Assembly: GCA_001600095.1 (NCBI GenBank)
Contig: BCIX01000001.1
Coordinates: forward strand, 4,861,198 to 4,925,197
DNA from: Bullera alba
Lineage: Eukaryota; Basidiomycota; Tremellomycetes; Tremellales; Bulleraceae
Length of the DNA stretch: 64,000 nucleotides
Direction of reading: 5' to 3'
Position numbers and translations under genes: made by a program. Shown here one piece after another: positions 5,622 to 14,942 of the stretch (within the stretch, counting starts at the first letter, position 1; each line of letters opens with the position of its first letter). The notes below the pieces were generated by a model. That model saw only the letters and a list, made by a program, of their open reading frames with translations, did not search any database and was not told the origin of the DNA.

Positions 5622-7585
5622 TTACTGCTTCTTTCGGTGCTCCTGCGCCACATGGTCAGCACATTCGCGATACAATGACCCAGTGCCTGCTTCGCCAGGC
5701 TTCGCCCCCACTCACCGGCTTGTGATCCACCTCGTGATCCACGTGGATGAAACACCTATCGACGTCGGGCAGAGCTTCAATCTGGTCTTGCAGCTCTTGC
5801 GCGATATCGTGAGCTCGCCACAGCGGCATTTCGGGGTCAAGGACAATGTCAACTTCGACAAAGTATCGGGGGCCAGAGTGGTACACTCGGCAGGTGTCGA
5901 TTTGCTTGATCTCGGGTGAGAACGTCATGGCCTGGTATCAAGTCAGCGACATCCCATTGCGCGCTTGGATTACTTGCCTTGTAGGTCACGAGGTTCTGGT
6001 ACTCAGTCGGGGCGGCGATGCCTGCCAGATGGCAAAAGTGTTCTGGACCGATGTCAAATCCTGTCTCCACGATTTGCACACTACTTCACTTCGCTCACCT
6101 CGCAGGGTGATGATCCAGACAATGATGATTGTCGTAGCAATGATCATAGCGCCCATCGGGTCAATCTTGAGAGTCATGAGTCCGGGATCCCCGTTCTGAA
6201 ACCACATTTACTCACCCACCACCGTAGCTTGGATCCTCCAGCAGAAGTGAGGATACCGAAGCCATTACTGTTGGAGCGAGGTCAGCCTGTAGCGTGCATG
6301 CGGCCTGACCGAAGGATACCCACGTCAAGAGATCGTTTCGGTGGTCCTCCCACAAGACTTGAACTTGCGATGACGACTTTCGGATAGCGTAGCAGTAGAG
6401 GAACAAGGAGAGCTTGGTTCCAAAGGCAATACCAACCGCGATAATCGAAGGGAGGTGGAAGTTGTTCACCTCTCGGCCATCGTGCGTGATGAACGACTGA
6501 ATGGATTGAACCTATCGATAACCTAGTCAGTGACTGATTTTACGACCAGTCGTCGGCACCGATTCTTACGATGAGGATGAGATTGACAGCGGCCATGATG
6601 AACGAATAGACTTTTTTCTAGGTTAGCATGATTGTACCGACAGGGATAGAAGCTCTGGTCTGACTCACTGATGTTACCACTGTATAGCGCGTCGCAGTGA
6701 GTACCCAAGCAACTCGCATCCATGTTGAAACACTCACACTAAACCTCGTCAGCTTCGTGATCGTCTACACAGATGAGCCACAGGGTGCTCACTCGATTCG
6801 AAACGGGATCCGCCAGAGGGCCACTTCTTCTCCTCTGCCCTGGCTGACGCCCTATGCGCGAGCCAAAGAATGAGATTTGCCAGCGGGTCAACTTCAGGCC
6901 TCGGTTAGCATGGCAACGCTGGACACATAGAGTGTAAGCTCACAGACTGTGAGGAAGGAGCATCTCGTTAGTATCTATCACAGGATGATCCGCAAAGCCA
7001 GTCTGACTCGCCTGAATCGATCATCGTGGCGAATAGTGCCAGAGAGCCACTGCTGATGGCGGCATAGAGCTGCAGGACAGCAAGAACGATGTTCGCTCCA
7101 AACGAGATGTTAATCGCCAGCTTGACTTTGAGAGCATTGTCCCTCGCATCCTGCTCTCCTTCGGCCGATAAAGTGGAGAGGGGCTTGAGCATATCAAGGA
7201 TATGGTCATTCTGCGCTGTGTAAAAGGTCGCAATGCGGCGTCCTTTGCGTCGTCTACGCGGGAGATCTTATCAGTGCCTTCCCTTCCAAAGCTGCTGATA
7301 TCGTAGCATCTGACGCTAGCACTCGCTAGCCGGGAAGGCTGGCAAGTTTGCTCACTTTCGTAGACCCTCTAGAGCCTCTTCACTGATCACTTTGTCCCGC
7401 AAGAGTAGTGGGTCTCGCTCTCCCGCCTCTCTGCTAATCACAGTGTCCAGCCTCATCAACTCAATGTCATCCGGCGCTTCATTTCCCGCCGTAGTCGCTG
7501 CGTTGGTGGATCCCTCTCCGACCTTGGGGACGCTATTGCGCGTAGCTATCTCGGCGCCCGCTGCCGCTATCCTTGAGACACTCAT
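5622..7585 (-). CDS. cation diffusion facilitator (CDF) transporter with microexons
   Basis: A membrane transporter moving divalent metal ions out of the cytosol in exchange for protons (family knowledge; the metal cannot be told here). Predicted exons: 7356-7585, 7012-7253, 6944-6946, 6793-6891, 6738, 6669-6679, 6570-6610, 6324-6511, 6216-6267, 6099-6165, 5978-6060, 5716-5931 and 5622-5642. They sum to 1254 nt, 417 residues. Family motifs come in order: NISFGANIVLAVLQLYAAIS (TM1), DSVFDPLANLILW (metal-site DxxxD), KKWPSGGSRFESIGNIIYSF, WEDHRNDLLTNGFGIL (HxxxD), DPMGAMIIA, and the C-terminal domain YFVEVDIVLDPEMPLWRAHD...HVDHEVDHKPEHRKKQ. Exons of 1, 3 and 11 nt are required to keep frame through conserved motifs. 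Two introns use GC donors (5977 and 7011 sides) and one is only 38 nt (6061-6098). The amino terminus is soluble and acidic. The 38-nt intron is the least certain join. Confidence 0.88.
6738..6738 (-). other. predicted 1-nt microexon of the CDF gene
   Basis: On the minus strand the sequence around this base reads GAGGTTTAG, then T, then GTGAGTG. The single T lies between an acceptor (intron 6739-6792, 54 nt, CTGAC branch) and a donor (intron 6680-6737, 58 nt). The Ile codon of RFES-I-GNI is then A|T|T, split over three exons. Leaving the T out shifts the frame and destroys the following GNIIYSF motif. Confidence 0.7.
6944..6946 (-). other. predicted 3-nt microexon of the CDF gene
   Basis: Minus strand: acceptor CCTCACAG, then TCT, then donor GTGAGC. 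Joining the flanking exons through these three bases gives GAT TCA GTC TTT GAC CCG, which is DSVFDP, the expected metal-site motif. Without them the motif would be DSV/L-DP with one residue missing but still in frame. The neighbouring introns are 52 nt (6892-6943) and 65 nt (6947-7011, GC donor). Confidence 0.65.
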
Positions 7586-8067: not shown

Positions 8068-8776
8068 ATGGCGTCCACGACATCCAACCCCGCTACTTAC
8101 AAGGTAGGCCAGTTCGCTAACGATGTGAGAGCCATTTGAGCCTGACGTTCTCTAGTTCAACCACACTATGTTCAGGATCAAAGACCCCAAGGTGTCTCTG
8201 CCATGGTACGAGAAGGTTCTCGGAATGGAGGTCGGTCTTGTTGAGCTAAGATGACACACCGTAGATGAATTGACACTTGTTGTTAGATGTTCAGAGAAGG
8301 ACCCGGAAGCGACTTCACCAACTTCTTCCTCGCCTTCCCCAGTGGATTCCCTTCTGACGCCACTACCAAGGAGCAGAAGCAGGCCGCTCAGGCTGGCCGG
8401 GAGGGAATCCTCGAGCTATGCTGGAACCATGGCACTGAGAAGGACGATTCGTTCAAGGGTTACTCTAGCGGTAACGAGGAGCCAGGAAGAGGTTTCGGCC
8501 ATATCTGCATCTCGGTTGACGACCTCGATGCCGCCTGTAAGCGATTTGACGACCTTGGCGTCAAGTTCAAGAAGAGGCCAGAGGAGGGTCGAATGAGGGT
8601 CAGTCATGGCGATGACACCGCATTATAGCCGATCCGCTGACACTACTGCCAACGATAGAACATCGCTTTCATCCTTGACCCGGATGGTAAGTCATGCGAA
8701 CGCCGGCCGAACGACTTTCGCTGAACCTCTCTCAGGTTACTGGGTCGAGATCATTGCTCACGGAAAGAGCGCATAA
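8068..8776 (+). CDS. GLO1: glyoxalase I (lactoylglutathione lyase)
   Basis: Converts the hemithioacetal of methylglyoxal and glutathione to S-lactoylglutathione; cytosolic, zinc-dependent. Exons 8068-8103, 8156-8230, 8287-8598, 8659-8686 and 8736-8776 give 163 residues, about the length of a single-domain enzyme (human-like) rather than the doubled yeast form. The expected metal ligands are visible: His in KFNHTMFRIKD, Glu in ILELCWNHGTE, His in GRGFGHICISVDD and Glu in GYWVEIIAHGKSA. The start at ATG 8068 (MASTTSNPATYK) is the only one that splices into the first beta strand. Ends 156 bases from the convergent KU70 stop. Confidence 0.95.
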
Positions 8777-8932: not shown

Positions 8933-11808
8933 TCACGCCGTCTTGCGGCTTTTGCCTGCCTTGGCCTGACTCTTGAAGTGATTCGAGACCAGCTCTATCA
9001 AGTCGGCCTTCTTCGTTTTGCCGTCTAGACCAATCTTCTTGACCTTCAGGAAGTCCTTCAGTTCCACTACCTTCAATTTGGCCATCGTTTCACGGGTGTA
9101 CGCGCCCTCCACGTCTGCCAGATCTGACTCCTGGACCGGCGGCTTCACTCCCTGTCAGCCCTGTCCCCTGTGCTATCGACGCAGTCGTGAAAAAACCGCT
9201 CACGTCATCAAAGTATCGCTTGCCAGCGGTCCCTTTCGCTGTTAGCGTTCCGGTCGACCTTTCGTCGTCATCAATTGCGTTGTTCCACTCCGCCATGAAT
9301 TCGCCTGCGGCCTTGTGCATCCCATCATGCTTTGGGAACGTCTTGTCGATTTCGTCGATCTTTTGAGCGAGATCAAAGTCTTCTTGAAACGCTACTGCCT
9401 GCAGCTGGGCATAGTGGTATTGAAGTGCTACGTCGAGTCAGCTGGCTTAGAGCTTAGGAAGTGCAGGCCACTGACCGGGATTGGGGTAAACTTCCGATCG
9501 GTATTTAGCTGCTTTGCTCCTCAGTCTCTTGACGATGTTGCCCATTAGCTTGGACTGCCTCTCATTGGCTGTGACCGAGGTCGTTAGCTCAGCCTTGCTG
9601 GAGAGGAAGACATACTCACCGACGAGATTGTCCGTTATGTTCTTTGGAGGAGCGCGAATGTCATCAACATATGGCTGCGGAACAACGTGAAACCCGGGAG
9701 GCATGTCCTGTCCCCCTCCATCGATGAGGACCTCCTCTTGCGGGATAAGGATTGCGAACTCCGGTATACTGTTCTTTTTGAAGCGGCACAAGGCTAAGGC
9801 GTGTCGGTCATACTTGAGGCAAGACTTCAGTAGTGCGGCAAAAGTCCGAGTGGAACCTGTGTAGCTCTACAGTTTCGTGAGCTTTATACGGGTCCAATTC
9901 GCGTAAGGCAGCTTACGTCCTCATCAGGATATATGAAGTAAGAATGCTTGATGTTATCCTCGACGTTCATATTGTTGGGCGACTGGAAGCCCAGAATCTT
10001 GATCTCTGTACTATGTATCAGCTGGGGTCCTGTCAAAGCTAGAGACCTCATGCTCACGAGGCGTCAGGCCCATTGACTTAAACTCGGCAACTTCTTCTTT
10101 TGAGAATTGTAGCTACAACGCAGCTTAGCATTTGACGTACACCTCACCAGCCGCACTCACTCTTGTTCTTGCATTGACTCTTCGCTTTTGACCTTCCTGA
10201 AGCGCTGGTTTGGCATCCTCCTCCATGTCTAGCCCTCTCATCTCTTCGTCGCCATCCTCGCCTCGCTCTGCCCGGCGCTGACGTTGCTCCTGGTCTCTCC
10301 TCAGCAACTCGTTTGCGAGCTCTCGCTGTTCCCGTAGCTGATCGGATGACTCCCACCAGTTCGGGTCAAGGATATTGCGGACGGTGCCTTCGTTTCCGAA
10401 TTGATACGCCAGGCCGATCTCGTCCTCCTTGAGGTCTGCGCCGGTCTCCTAAAGGCATGAAGCAGATCAACGCCACGCAAATGCACGAGCTTGCTCTCAC
10501 TCACAACAGAGGTATATTGCGTCTTTGTGATGACTTGCTCAATCACTGGACCCCTCATTCTGACGTATTTTGGTTGTCCTTTCCCCTGCTCTGAGACCAA
10601 GGAGTATCCGGCGACCCCAATCTCGATATCACCATCCTTGCCTCCGAACCGTAAGGGGATGGTGAATTGCACTCTTTTGGGAGCATTCCGTATCGCCAAG
10701 TCGGTCAACAGATCCGCCAGTTTGTCGAGTCCCTCGGGCTCGGGTGCTTCAGATGTTGGAGCATCATCAGTGTCCTCTCTGCCGAGTATATCCTGGATGA
10801 AAATTCAGCCAGTTCCGTATAGCAGCTTACGCAGCTTGGCCAGCTCACATTCCAGTATAGTGTAGGATTGAACCTATGACCGGCTCTGTCCACGAAGAAG
10901 GTGTTGATCGTAATGCCATACGTTAAGAGGTCCTGTGTATAGGGCGTCAGCCGAGTGCTGAAAGAGATTTGCCCGTACGCACTGTGTAGACGGTCCTTGC
11001 GGGTGCTCTATTGGATGTACTACCAACGGGTTCGTCGTTGTCCGTGATCAAGAAGATTCGCTTGTTTCCAGCTATCTTGGTACCTCTGAAGCGACCATCA
11101 GCTACAATGGAGCCCACTGGCCGATAGTACTTCACTCACGCATCTCGAAAGAGGAAATTACAGGTCACCAGTACATCCGCCACATTCAACTCGTCGCCCT
11201 CTTTACAGGATGGGAACGCCTCGCTCAAAATCGATGGCTGGACTGTGTCTCCAGCTTGTGAATCGTACTCTTCTTGTGCTGACTCTGCCAGGCCGATGAT
11301 CTTCTTCATGACCTCGGCGTTGATGGTGCGCAATGGTTGATAAACGATTGTACCTGGCTTGTAATTGCTAGAACCCGAGGCTGACGGTTTGCTGGGCTGA
11401 ACCATATGATCAGCGGCGTCTCGGCACAGGTGTATACGCCAGACCTACATCTGTGTTCCAGAACATCACTCCTACGCTGTCTGAGGGACCTGTGATGACT
11501 TTTTTCCTCTGTAGTTCCACCACCGCTTCCAAGACCTGCTGTAGTGCCGATTTGCCCTTGATCACGCCTCCGGGGTTGGTGACGTCCGGTCTTGGTGTCT
11601 GCATTGATTTGGAGGCGTCGATGCAGAATAGCACATGGTCCCGAGCTGCGTAGGCGTACTACCATGGGTCACTACTGTCAGCCTCCTTCCCCTAGCGAAT
11701 CTGATGTGTGCTCACCTCAGAGGTATCCACTACATCATCTTCGTCCTGCTGCTCAAATTGATCCCAAGAAGGAACATTACCAGGCCTGCCACCATAGTAC
11801 GAGCTCAT
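8933..11808 (-). CDS. KU70: Ku70 subunit of the Ku DNA end-binding heterodimer
   Basis: With Ku80 it rings broken DNA ends and starts non-homologous end joining; it also acts at telomeres. Thirteen predicted exons (11716-11808, 11449-11658, 11140-11396, 10983-11085, 10849-10932, 10505-10792, 10161-10448, 10058-10112, 9917-10005, 9620-9866, 9476-9568, 9204-9427 and 8933-9151) sum to 2250 nt, 749 residues. The vWA-like domain is seen in YAYAARDHVLFCIDASKSMQ and NKRIFLITDNDEPVG. The beta-barrel core follows, with PKRVQFTIPLRFGGKDGDIE and TRTFAALLKSCLKYDRHAL; then the helical arm (KAAGEFMAEWNNAI). A C-terminal SAP DNA-binding domain ends it (MAKLKVVELKDFLKVKKIG...KADLIELVSNHF). The start MSSYYGGRPGNVPSWDQFE is followed by an acidic run, usual for the family. 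All introns are 48-59 nt. Confidence 0.95.

Positions 11809-12160: not shown

Positions 12161-14942
<2,782 letters not shown>

What the first reader, a model, noticed from the sequence alone, without database searches (positions are those of the whole stretch)
6680..6792. A single-nucleotide exon in a CDF transporter gene
On the minus strand a single T (6738) lies between a TTTAG acceptor and a GTGAGT donor. The two flanking introns (54 and 58 nt) have ordinary length and branch-like CTGAC or CTCAC words. Removing both introns but keeping the T gives RFESIGNIIYSF, a motif expected in fungal CDF proteins, with Ile codon A|T|T split across three exons. Skipping the T as one 113-nt intron puts the rest of the protein out of frame. 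Exon definition cannot work on one base, so intron definition or recursive splicing (first one half, then the other) must operate. One-base exons are known only as rarities.
Basis: partly seen in the sequence, partly recalled or inferred. Interest (0 to 1): 0.9.

Follow-up and report, generated by a model that had tools for sequence, protein, structure and literature searches.

The report
One-nucleotide exon in fungal metal transporter
A fungal metal-transporter gene likely has an exon of one letter, a single T between two short introns, and public protein records of related fungi, Cryptococcus among them, depart from the expected sequence at this same spot, which suggests that the tiny exon is ancient and that annotation software misses it.

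Summary
Confirmed and extended. The minus-strand gene 7585-5622 encodes a 411-aa cation diffusion facilitator in 13 exons. T6738 lies between a 54-nt and a 58-nt GT-AG intron. P0001, a 99% identical protein, is encoded on a 1457-nt public contig, too short to hold the introns (so probably cDNA), and reads RFESIGNIIYSF. Enumeration leaves only two canonical models for that peptide, both with a one-nucleotide T exon; no single intron of any ends can replace the pair. The gene also has a 3-nt exon (6946-6944, in the DxxxD motif) and an 11-nt exon (6679-6669). Proteins from named Tremellomycetes lack the motif here in 34 of 37, other named fungi in 1 of 84, unnamed contig proteins in 0 of 26. In 17 of the 34 the wrong residues are what misreading around a donor after the A, or after the T, would give. 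So the exon is probably shared by three orders of Tremellomycetes. One-nucleotide nuclear exons are published for Arabidopsis APC11 and Fusarium CYP621A; this is a new, apparently older member. No reads and no DNA of relatives could be examined.

The parts
5622..7585 (-). CDF (cation diffusion facilitator) gene, ATG to stop, 13 exons, 411 aa
   Evidence: one open frame after removal of 12 introns; Pfam Cation_efflux 90.2 bits and ZT_dimer 47.5 bits; 99% identical protein P0001
6793..6891 (-). 99-nt exon upstream, ends in the A of the split Ile codon
6739..6792 (-). intron 4, 54 nt, GTGAGC...TTTAG, branch-like CTGAC
6738..6738 (-). predicted one-nucleotide exon, T, middle base of the Ile codon A|T|T
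   Evidence: only base with good splice sites on both sides that gives the peptide of P0001
6680..6737 (-). intron 5, 58 nt, GTGAGT...TACAG, branch-like CTCAC
6669..6679 (-). 11-nt exon TGGTAACATCA
   Evidence: residues GNI and the first base of the next Ile, present in P0001
6611..6668 (-). intron 6, 58 nt, GTGAGT...AAAAG, branch-like CTAAC
6947..7011 (-). intron 2, 65 nt, GC-AG
6944..6946 (-). 3-nt exon TCT, completes V and F of DSVFD
   Evidence: only canonical solution for DSVFDP; F present in P0001
6892..6943 (-). intron 3, 52 nt, GTGAGC...TGAAG
6732..6732 (-). alternative one-nucleotide T exon that would give the same mRNA, with a poor donor (GTTTCA) and a poor acceptor (GTGAG)
   Evidence: second model; U1 pairing -1.8 kcal/mol

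Best explanation
In this cation diffusion facilitator gene of a tremellomycete fungus, T6738 is predicted to be a one-nucleotide exon that supplies the middle base of an Ile codon and is kept while the 54-nt and 58-nt introns beside it are likely spliced out one after the other by ordinary intron definition. Shown by calls: the sequence anatomy; that no other canonical model (save T6732) and no single intron of any ends gives the peptide; and that a 99% identical protein is encoded without the introns on a 1457-nt contig. Inferred: that this contig is cDNA, that T6738 rather than T6732 is the base used, and that removal is sequential. Each intron has its own donor, branch word and acceptor and a length near the peak for this window. 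Removing either one first leaves a normal site for the other: a donor GAT|GTGAGT (U1 pairing -7.4 kcal/mol), or an acceptor TTTAG|T joined to the 11-nt exon. The exon is probably ancestral to Tremellales, Trichosporonales and Filobasidiales, and constitutive, because dropping it alone shifts the frame.
For: P0001: 99% identity, 399 aa on a contig of 1457 nt while the gene spans 1964 nt, reads SVFDP and RFESIGNIIYSF. Canonical models for the peptide: 0 with one, two or four introns, 2 with three introns, both with a 1-nt T exon; 0 two-intron models with any dinucleotides. Shuffles 28 of 20,000, with branch words 4 of 20,000. Intron lengths peak at 45-64 nt. No other copy of the gene found in the genome. 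Motif lacking in 34 of 37 proteins of named Tremellomycetes, in 1 of 84 of other named fungi, 0 of 26 unnamed. Of the 34, 11 have SD/SN for I (donor taken 4 nt downstream, GTRA|GT), 5 read on into a GT donor right after the A, 1 reads A-T-GTGCGT. P0017 and P0025, both C. deuterogattii, differ only by F and by I against SD; P0040, 96% identical to P0025, has F and I. P0018 and P0019, both Kwoniella pini, differ at the same junction.
Against: No RNA reads were mapped and the DNA of P0001 was not seen; it is from another strain or species (99%, not 100%), and 'lgn' is not explained by the tool. The class-wide reading rests on protein records: the 11 that drop 12 nt in frame fit a single 12-nt exon as well, 6 of the 34 are unexplained (P0003, P0007, P0008, P0033, P0043, P0045), and 8 of the 11 SD/SN records are near-identical C. 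gattii-complex strains. 3 of 37 have the motif (P0017, P0034, P0037); whether by a modelled 1-nt exon or by intron loss is unknown. P0121 and P0122, neighbours of the window gene in the tree, seem to lack introns here. T6732 gives the same mRNA.
Confidence: 0.9

Rival explanations
1. One 113-nt intron plus a base lost from the assembly, or from this strain, at the start of the 11-nt exon; the AG-T-GTGAGT inside the intron is accidental.
For: P0001 would look the same, since it shows only the protein. The gene does hold one intron of 102 nt.
Against: Accidental match in 28 of 20,000 shuffles, 4 of 20,000 with branch words; two halves of 54 and 58 nt sit near the length peak. SD/SN footprints in Cryptococcus and Naganishia imply a base missing from both exons there too, which one assembly slip cannot explain.
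Confidence: 0.05
2. The one-nucleotide exon is T6732, not T6738: introns of 60 nt (6792-6733) and 52 nt (6731-6680).
For: Gives the same mRNA with GT-AG introns.
Against: Donor GTTTCA pairs with U1 at only -1.8 kcal/mol against -8.4 for GTGAGT; acceptor GTGAG has no pyrimidine before AG.
Confidence: 0.03
3. The main message skips both the 1-nt and the 11-nt exon, in frame, giving RFESIYSF (407 aa).
For: The skip keeps the frame, and 11 of 37 named Tremellomycetes proteins are annotated so.
Against: P0001 and the other 25 of 26 unnamed proteins keep the motif, as do 83 of 84 other named fungi; the skip needs a 182-nt intron. A minor skipping isoform is not excluded.
Confidence: 0.02

Closest known systems
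One-nucleotide exon of Fusarium CYP621A (PMC12940212; abstract, Results and Discussion read)
   Same: Fungal nuclear gene, one base between two short introns, middle base of a codon in a conserved motif, supported by transcripts and by an intron-free relative.
   Different: Ascomycete P450 found in one genus and its kin, base G, 139-nt total in F. graminearum. Here a basidiomycete metal transporter, base T, 113 nt total, beside a 3-nt and an 11-nt exon, with footprints in three orders.
Single-nucleotide exon of Arabidopsis APC11 (PMC4674806; abstract and Discussion read)
   Same: Constitutive one-base exon between two introns; the authors favour intron definition combined with stepwise removal.
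   Different: Plant gene, tested there with reporter constructs; here evidence is sequence, one cDNA-like contig and comparison.
Stwintrons, nested spliceosomal twin introns of fungi (PMC9024468, PMC12403724 and others; listing with abstract starts only)
   Same: Two neighbouring short introns that are removed in consecutive reactions.
   Different: In a stwintron an inner intron interrupts a splice element of the outer one; here both introns are complete and a coding base stays between them.
Placozoan mitochondrial cox1 one-base exon (PMC5436844; listing only)
   Same: An exon of one base.
   Different: Mitochondrial gene; not a spliceosomal case (recalled). Two fungal mitochondrial papers with the term (PMC12308204, PMC8208691) were listed and not read.

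Membership tests
One-nucleotide spliceosomal exon | exactly one base between an AG acceptor and a GT donor, each with a full intron on its other side | tested here: met
One-nucleotide spliceosomal exon | the base is needed for the reading frame and no other junction gives the protein | tested here: met
   T6732 is the only other candidate base
One-nucleotide spliceosomal exon | the base is present in spliced RNA | tested here: inconclusive
   P0001 shows the protein from a contig too short for introns; its nucleotides and reads were not available
CDF transporter family | Cation_efflux and ZT_dimer domains over their cut-offs | tested here: met
   90.2 bits (cut-off 26.6) and 47.5 bits (cut-off 26.7); DSVFD aligns with DSLVD of FieF
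Stwintron | an internal intron interrupts the donor, branch or acceptor of an external intron | tested here: not met
   both introns have uninterrupted donor, branch-like word and acceptor; nested models were not enumerated

The most novel reading that the evidence does not exclude
The one-base exon is an ancient fixed feature of Tremellomycetes: it arose before Tremellales, Trichosporonales and Filobasidiales parted, more than 200 million years ago, has been spliced constitutively in most lineages since, and has gone unseen because annotation programs cannot model it. Intron-dense basidiomycete genomes would then hide more such exons, and under intron definition an exon needs hardly any length to persist.
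Probability: 0.68. Interest if true: 0.82.

Novelty: new member of a known kind. Interest (0 to 1): 0.72.

Why it matters
If true, the smallest possible exon can be stable over very long evolutionary time, which bears on how short an exon the spliceosome tolerates and on the order in which introns are removed. It also means that 34 of the 37 protein records of named Tremellomycetes examined here, Cryptococcus among them, are probably wrong at the IGN motif, and 28 of 37 lack a residue of the DxxxD motif (recalled as a metal site of the family) through the neighbouring 3-nt exon. It gives annotators a test case below the limit of present software, with natural replicates in many species.

Tried and rejected
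Single intron with non-canonical ends: 0 models with any dinucleotides. Joint skipping of the 1-nt and 11-nt exons as main message: against P0001 and the intact proteins. Intronless copy as source of P0001: a search of the genome with the full protein found 8 matches, all exons of this locus (the tool scores only its best candidates). Fungal DNA in viral contigs: 4 stretches matched a pattern, none confirmed. Rfam and tRNA scans of the window: 0. The other CDF loci were not studied. Paper searches gave no report of this exon. My first junction patterns failed on many proteins outside Tremellomycetes and were replaced.

What the counts hold: 148 proteins = 37 named Tremellomycetes + 84 other named + 26 unnamed + 1 set aside before counting (P0129, taken as a C. 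bacillisporus paralogue). 37 proteins are not 37 species. Groups were made by me from the names; the name of P0120, put with the 84, was cut off before the organism. Six taxonomy look-ups confirm class and order for six species only. The test accepts Ile, Val or Ala before G; P0121 has Ala. Of the 26 unnamed, 16 were put in the tree and 12 of these fell with Tremellomycetes; not all 26 are cDNA-like contigs (lengths up to 57,894 nt). The lists are the best 120 of 2044 and 58. Of the shuffle control, the broadest pattern (AG-T-GT anywhere) arose in 2010 of 20,000, so that pattern alone would not be remarkable.

Full report
On the minus strand the exon ending CGTTTCGAATCGA (6793) is followed by a 54-nt intron (6792-6739), a single T (6738), a 58-nt intron (6737-6680), an 11-nt exon (6679-6669) and a further 58-nt intron. 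I read the whole gene through: ATG at 7585, stop at 5622, 13 exons, 12 introns, 411 aa, one open frame. It carries Cation_efflux (90.2 bits) and ZT_dimer (47.5 bits). Ten introns are GT-AG, two (introns 2 and 11) GC-AG. Besides the 1-nt exon there is a 3-nt exon (6946-6944) and the 11-nt exon, all within 278 nt.

The strongest support is a nearly identical protein. P0001 is 99% identical over 97% of the query, 399 aa, on a contig of 1457 nt. The genomic gene spans 1964 nt, so this contig cannot hold the introns; I infer that it is cDNA (the source code 'lgn' is not explained by the tool; I take it to be assembled public reads). It reads DSVFDPLANL and RFESIGNIIYSF. Which models of the window give that peptide? 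With GT-AG, GC-AG and AT-AC introns of 20-400 nt there are none with one, two or four introns and two with three, both containing a one-nucleotide T exon: T6738 or, with a poor donor, T6732. With any dinucleotides at intron ends there is no two-intron model. The 3-nt exon is the only canonical solution for DSVFDP; without the F, one 120-nt intron would do. A search of the whole genome with the full protein gave 8 matches, all exons of this locus, so no second, intronless copy was seen.

Chance. In 20,000 dinucleotide-preserving shuffles of the 113 nt, YAG-T-GTRAG[TC] with at least 40 nt on both sides arose 28 times, with a branch word in both halves 4 times; the bare AG-T-GT arose 2010 times. 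The count over window stretches of 113 nt (5 of 18,254) may be the site itself, sampled every 7 nt. Intron-like stretches in the window peak at 45-64 nt, 98 against 15.3 expected, with 11 against 8.0 at 105-114 nt. Loosely defined introns lie one base apart at two places in the 64 kb: here and at 14479.

Relatives. Of 148 proteins from two searches, 37 come from named Tremellomycetes, 84 from other named sources, 26 are unnamed, and 1 paralogue was set aside. The motif at this junction is lacking in 34 of 37, in 1 of 84 (a chytrid protein with another sequence, RRFETAGIIVF) and in 0 of 26. The F of the DxxxD motif is lacking in 28 of 37. The 34 fall into kinds: 11 join RFET directly to I/M and Y/F, an in-frame loss of 12 nt; 11 have SD or SN in place of I (10 SD, 1 SN); 5 have S followed by residues that read on into a GT donor (SEW, SEC, SEP, SMF, SIS); 1 (P0016) reads MCV, that is A-T-GTGCGT by back-translation; 6 are unexplained. 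SD and SN are informative: A + GTGA (or GTAA) + T-GGN keeps frame only if the next exon starts one base before GGN, so one base of the Ile codon lies in neither exon. Eight of the 11 are C. gattii-complex strains; the others are C. depauperatus, C. wingfieldii and Naganishia albida. The 12-nt kind cannot tell 1 + 11 nt from a single 12-nt exon. The window's own retention products show the same footprints: keeping intron 4 gives RFES-SE, keeping intron 5 gives RFES-M. Two C. deuterogattii records, P0017 and P0025, differ only at these two sites, and P0040, an unnamed protein 96% identical to P0025, has F and I. The discriminating footprints occur in Tremellales (Cryptococcus, Kockovaella, Kwoniella), Trichosporonales (Vanrija, Cryptotrichosporon) and Filobasidiales (Naganishia); orders were looked up for six species.

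Unnamed proteins. Five short contigs (P0001, P0002, P0035, P0038, P0039; 951-1630 nt) encode 288-452 aa in one frame with the motif intact. In the tree P0038 stands beside Filobasidium and P0035 in the same group of seven (100/99), P0002 and P0039 near Saitozyma (86/79), and the window gene with P0001 (100/100) near Kockovaella (94/86). Twelve of the 16 unnamed proteins in the tree fall with Tremellomycetes; eleven of these read I and one (P0121) Ala before GN. P0121 and P0122, the next neighbours of the window gene (97/77), appear to be genomic frames without introns in this stretch, which suggests intron loss there.

Age. A 2026 paper gives about 221 million years (95% range 160-284) for the split of Naemateliaceae and Tremellaceae within Tremellales (PMC13085929, passages). 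The split between orders must be older; I did not see its figure. So the class-wide reading, which rests on protein footprints and not on DNA, would mean more than 200 million years.

Mechanism (inferred). Modelled U1 pairing is -4.6 kcal/mol for the donor of intron 4 and -8.4 for intron 5 (-7.4 after intron 4 is gone); the gene's 12 donors range from -4.4 to -12.0. Both introns have ordinary signals. The two sites around the T are too close to be bound at once (recalled), but removal of either intron first leaves a normal substrate for the other. This is the route proposed for APC11 (PMC4674806, Discussion). Skipping the T alone ends the protein after 223 aa, skipping the 11 nt alone after 268 aa, skipping both is in frame with 407 aa, skipping the 3 nt in frame with 410 aa. 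The 3-nt exon lies in DSVFD, which aligns with DSLVD of the bacterial pump FieF; that this DxxxD binds metal is recalled.

Known cases. Searches listed Arabidopsis APC11 and Fusarium CYP621A as papers on nuclear one-nucleotide exons, a placozoan mitochondrial cox1 case, and others not read. The Fusarium paper calls its case the second example and the first in a fungal gene (abstract). Plant catalogues of 1-15 nt exons (PMC12409088, PMC8831610, listings) may hold more. Searches listed nothing that I could recognise as such an exon in a basidiomycete; this holds for this library, and of these listings I looked into PMC3990503 and PMC8022950 (passages) and PMC12940212. The kind is known; the member, its phylum and its apparent depth of conservation look new.

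Noticed in passing
window 6946-6944 (-): A 3-nt exon (TCT) in the same gene; 28 of 37 protein records of named Tremellomycetes lack the F it helps to encode, so it too is probably conserved and missed.
   Followed up: partly
window 14479 (-): The only other place in the 64 kb where two loosely defined introns lie one base apart (GTGAGC 67 nt, A, GCAAGG 57 nt); probably chance.
   Followed up: no
window 7355-7254 (-): Intron 1 of the gene is 102 nt, about twice the usual length; P0001 shows no residue hidden in it.
   Followed up: no
window 8287-8628 (+): Open frame with a Glyoxalase domain (PF00903, 36.7 bits).
   Followed up: partly
window 8933-9866 (-): Frames with a Ku beta-barrel match (9447-9866, 42.9 bits) and a SAP/HeH-like match (8933-9154, just under cut-off): probably a Ku70 gene.
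   Followed up: partly
P0018 and P0019 (Kwoniella pini records): Two records of one species differ at the one-nucleotide exon junction (RFETMYGS against RFETSISFTFATVYGS).
   Followed up: no
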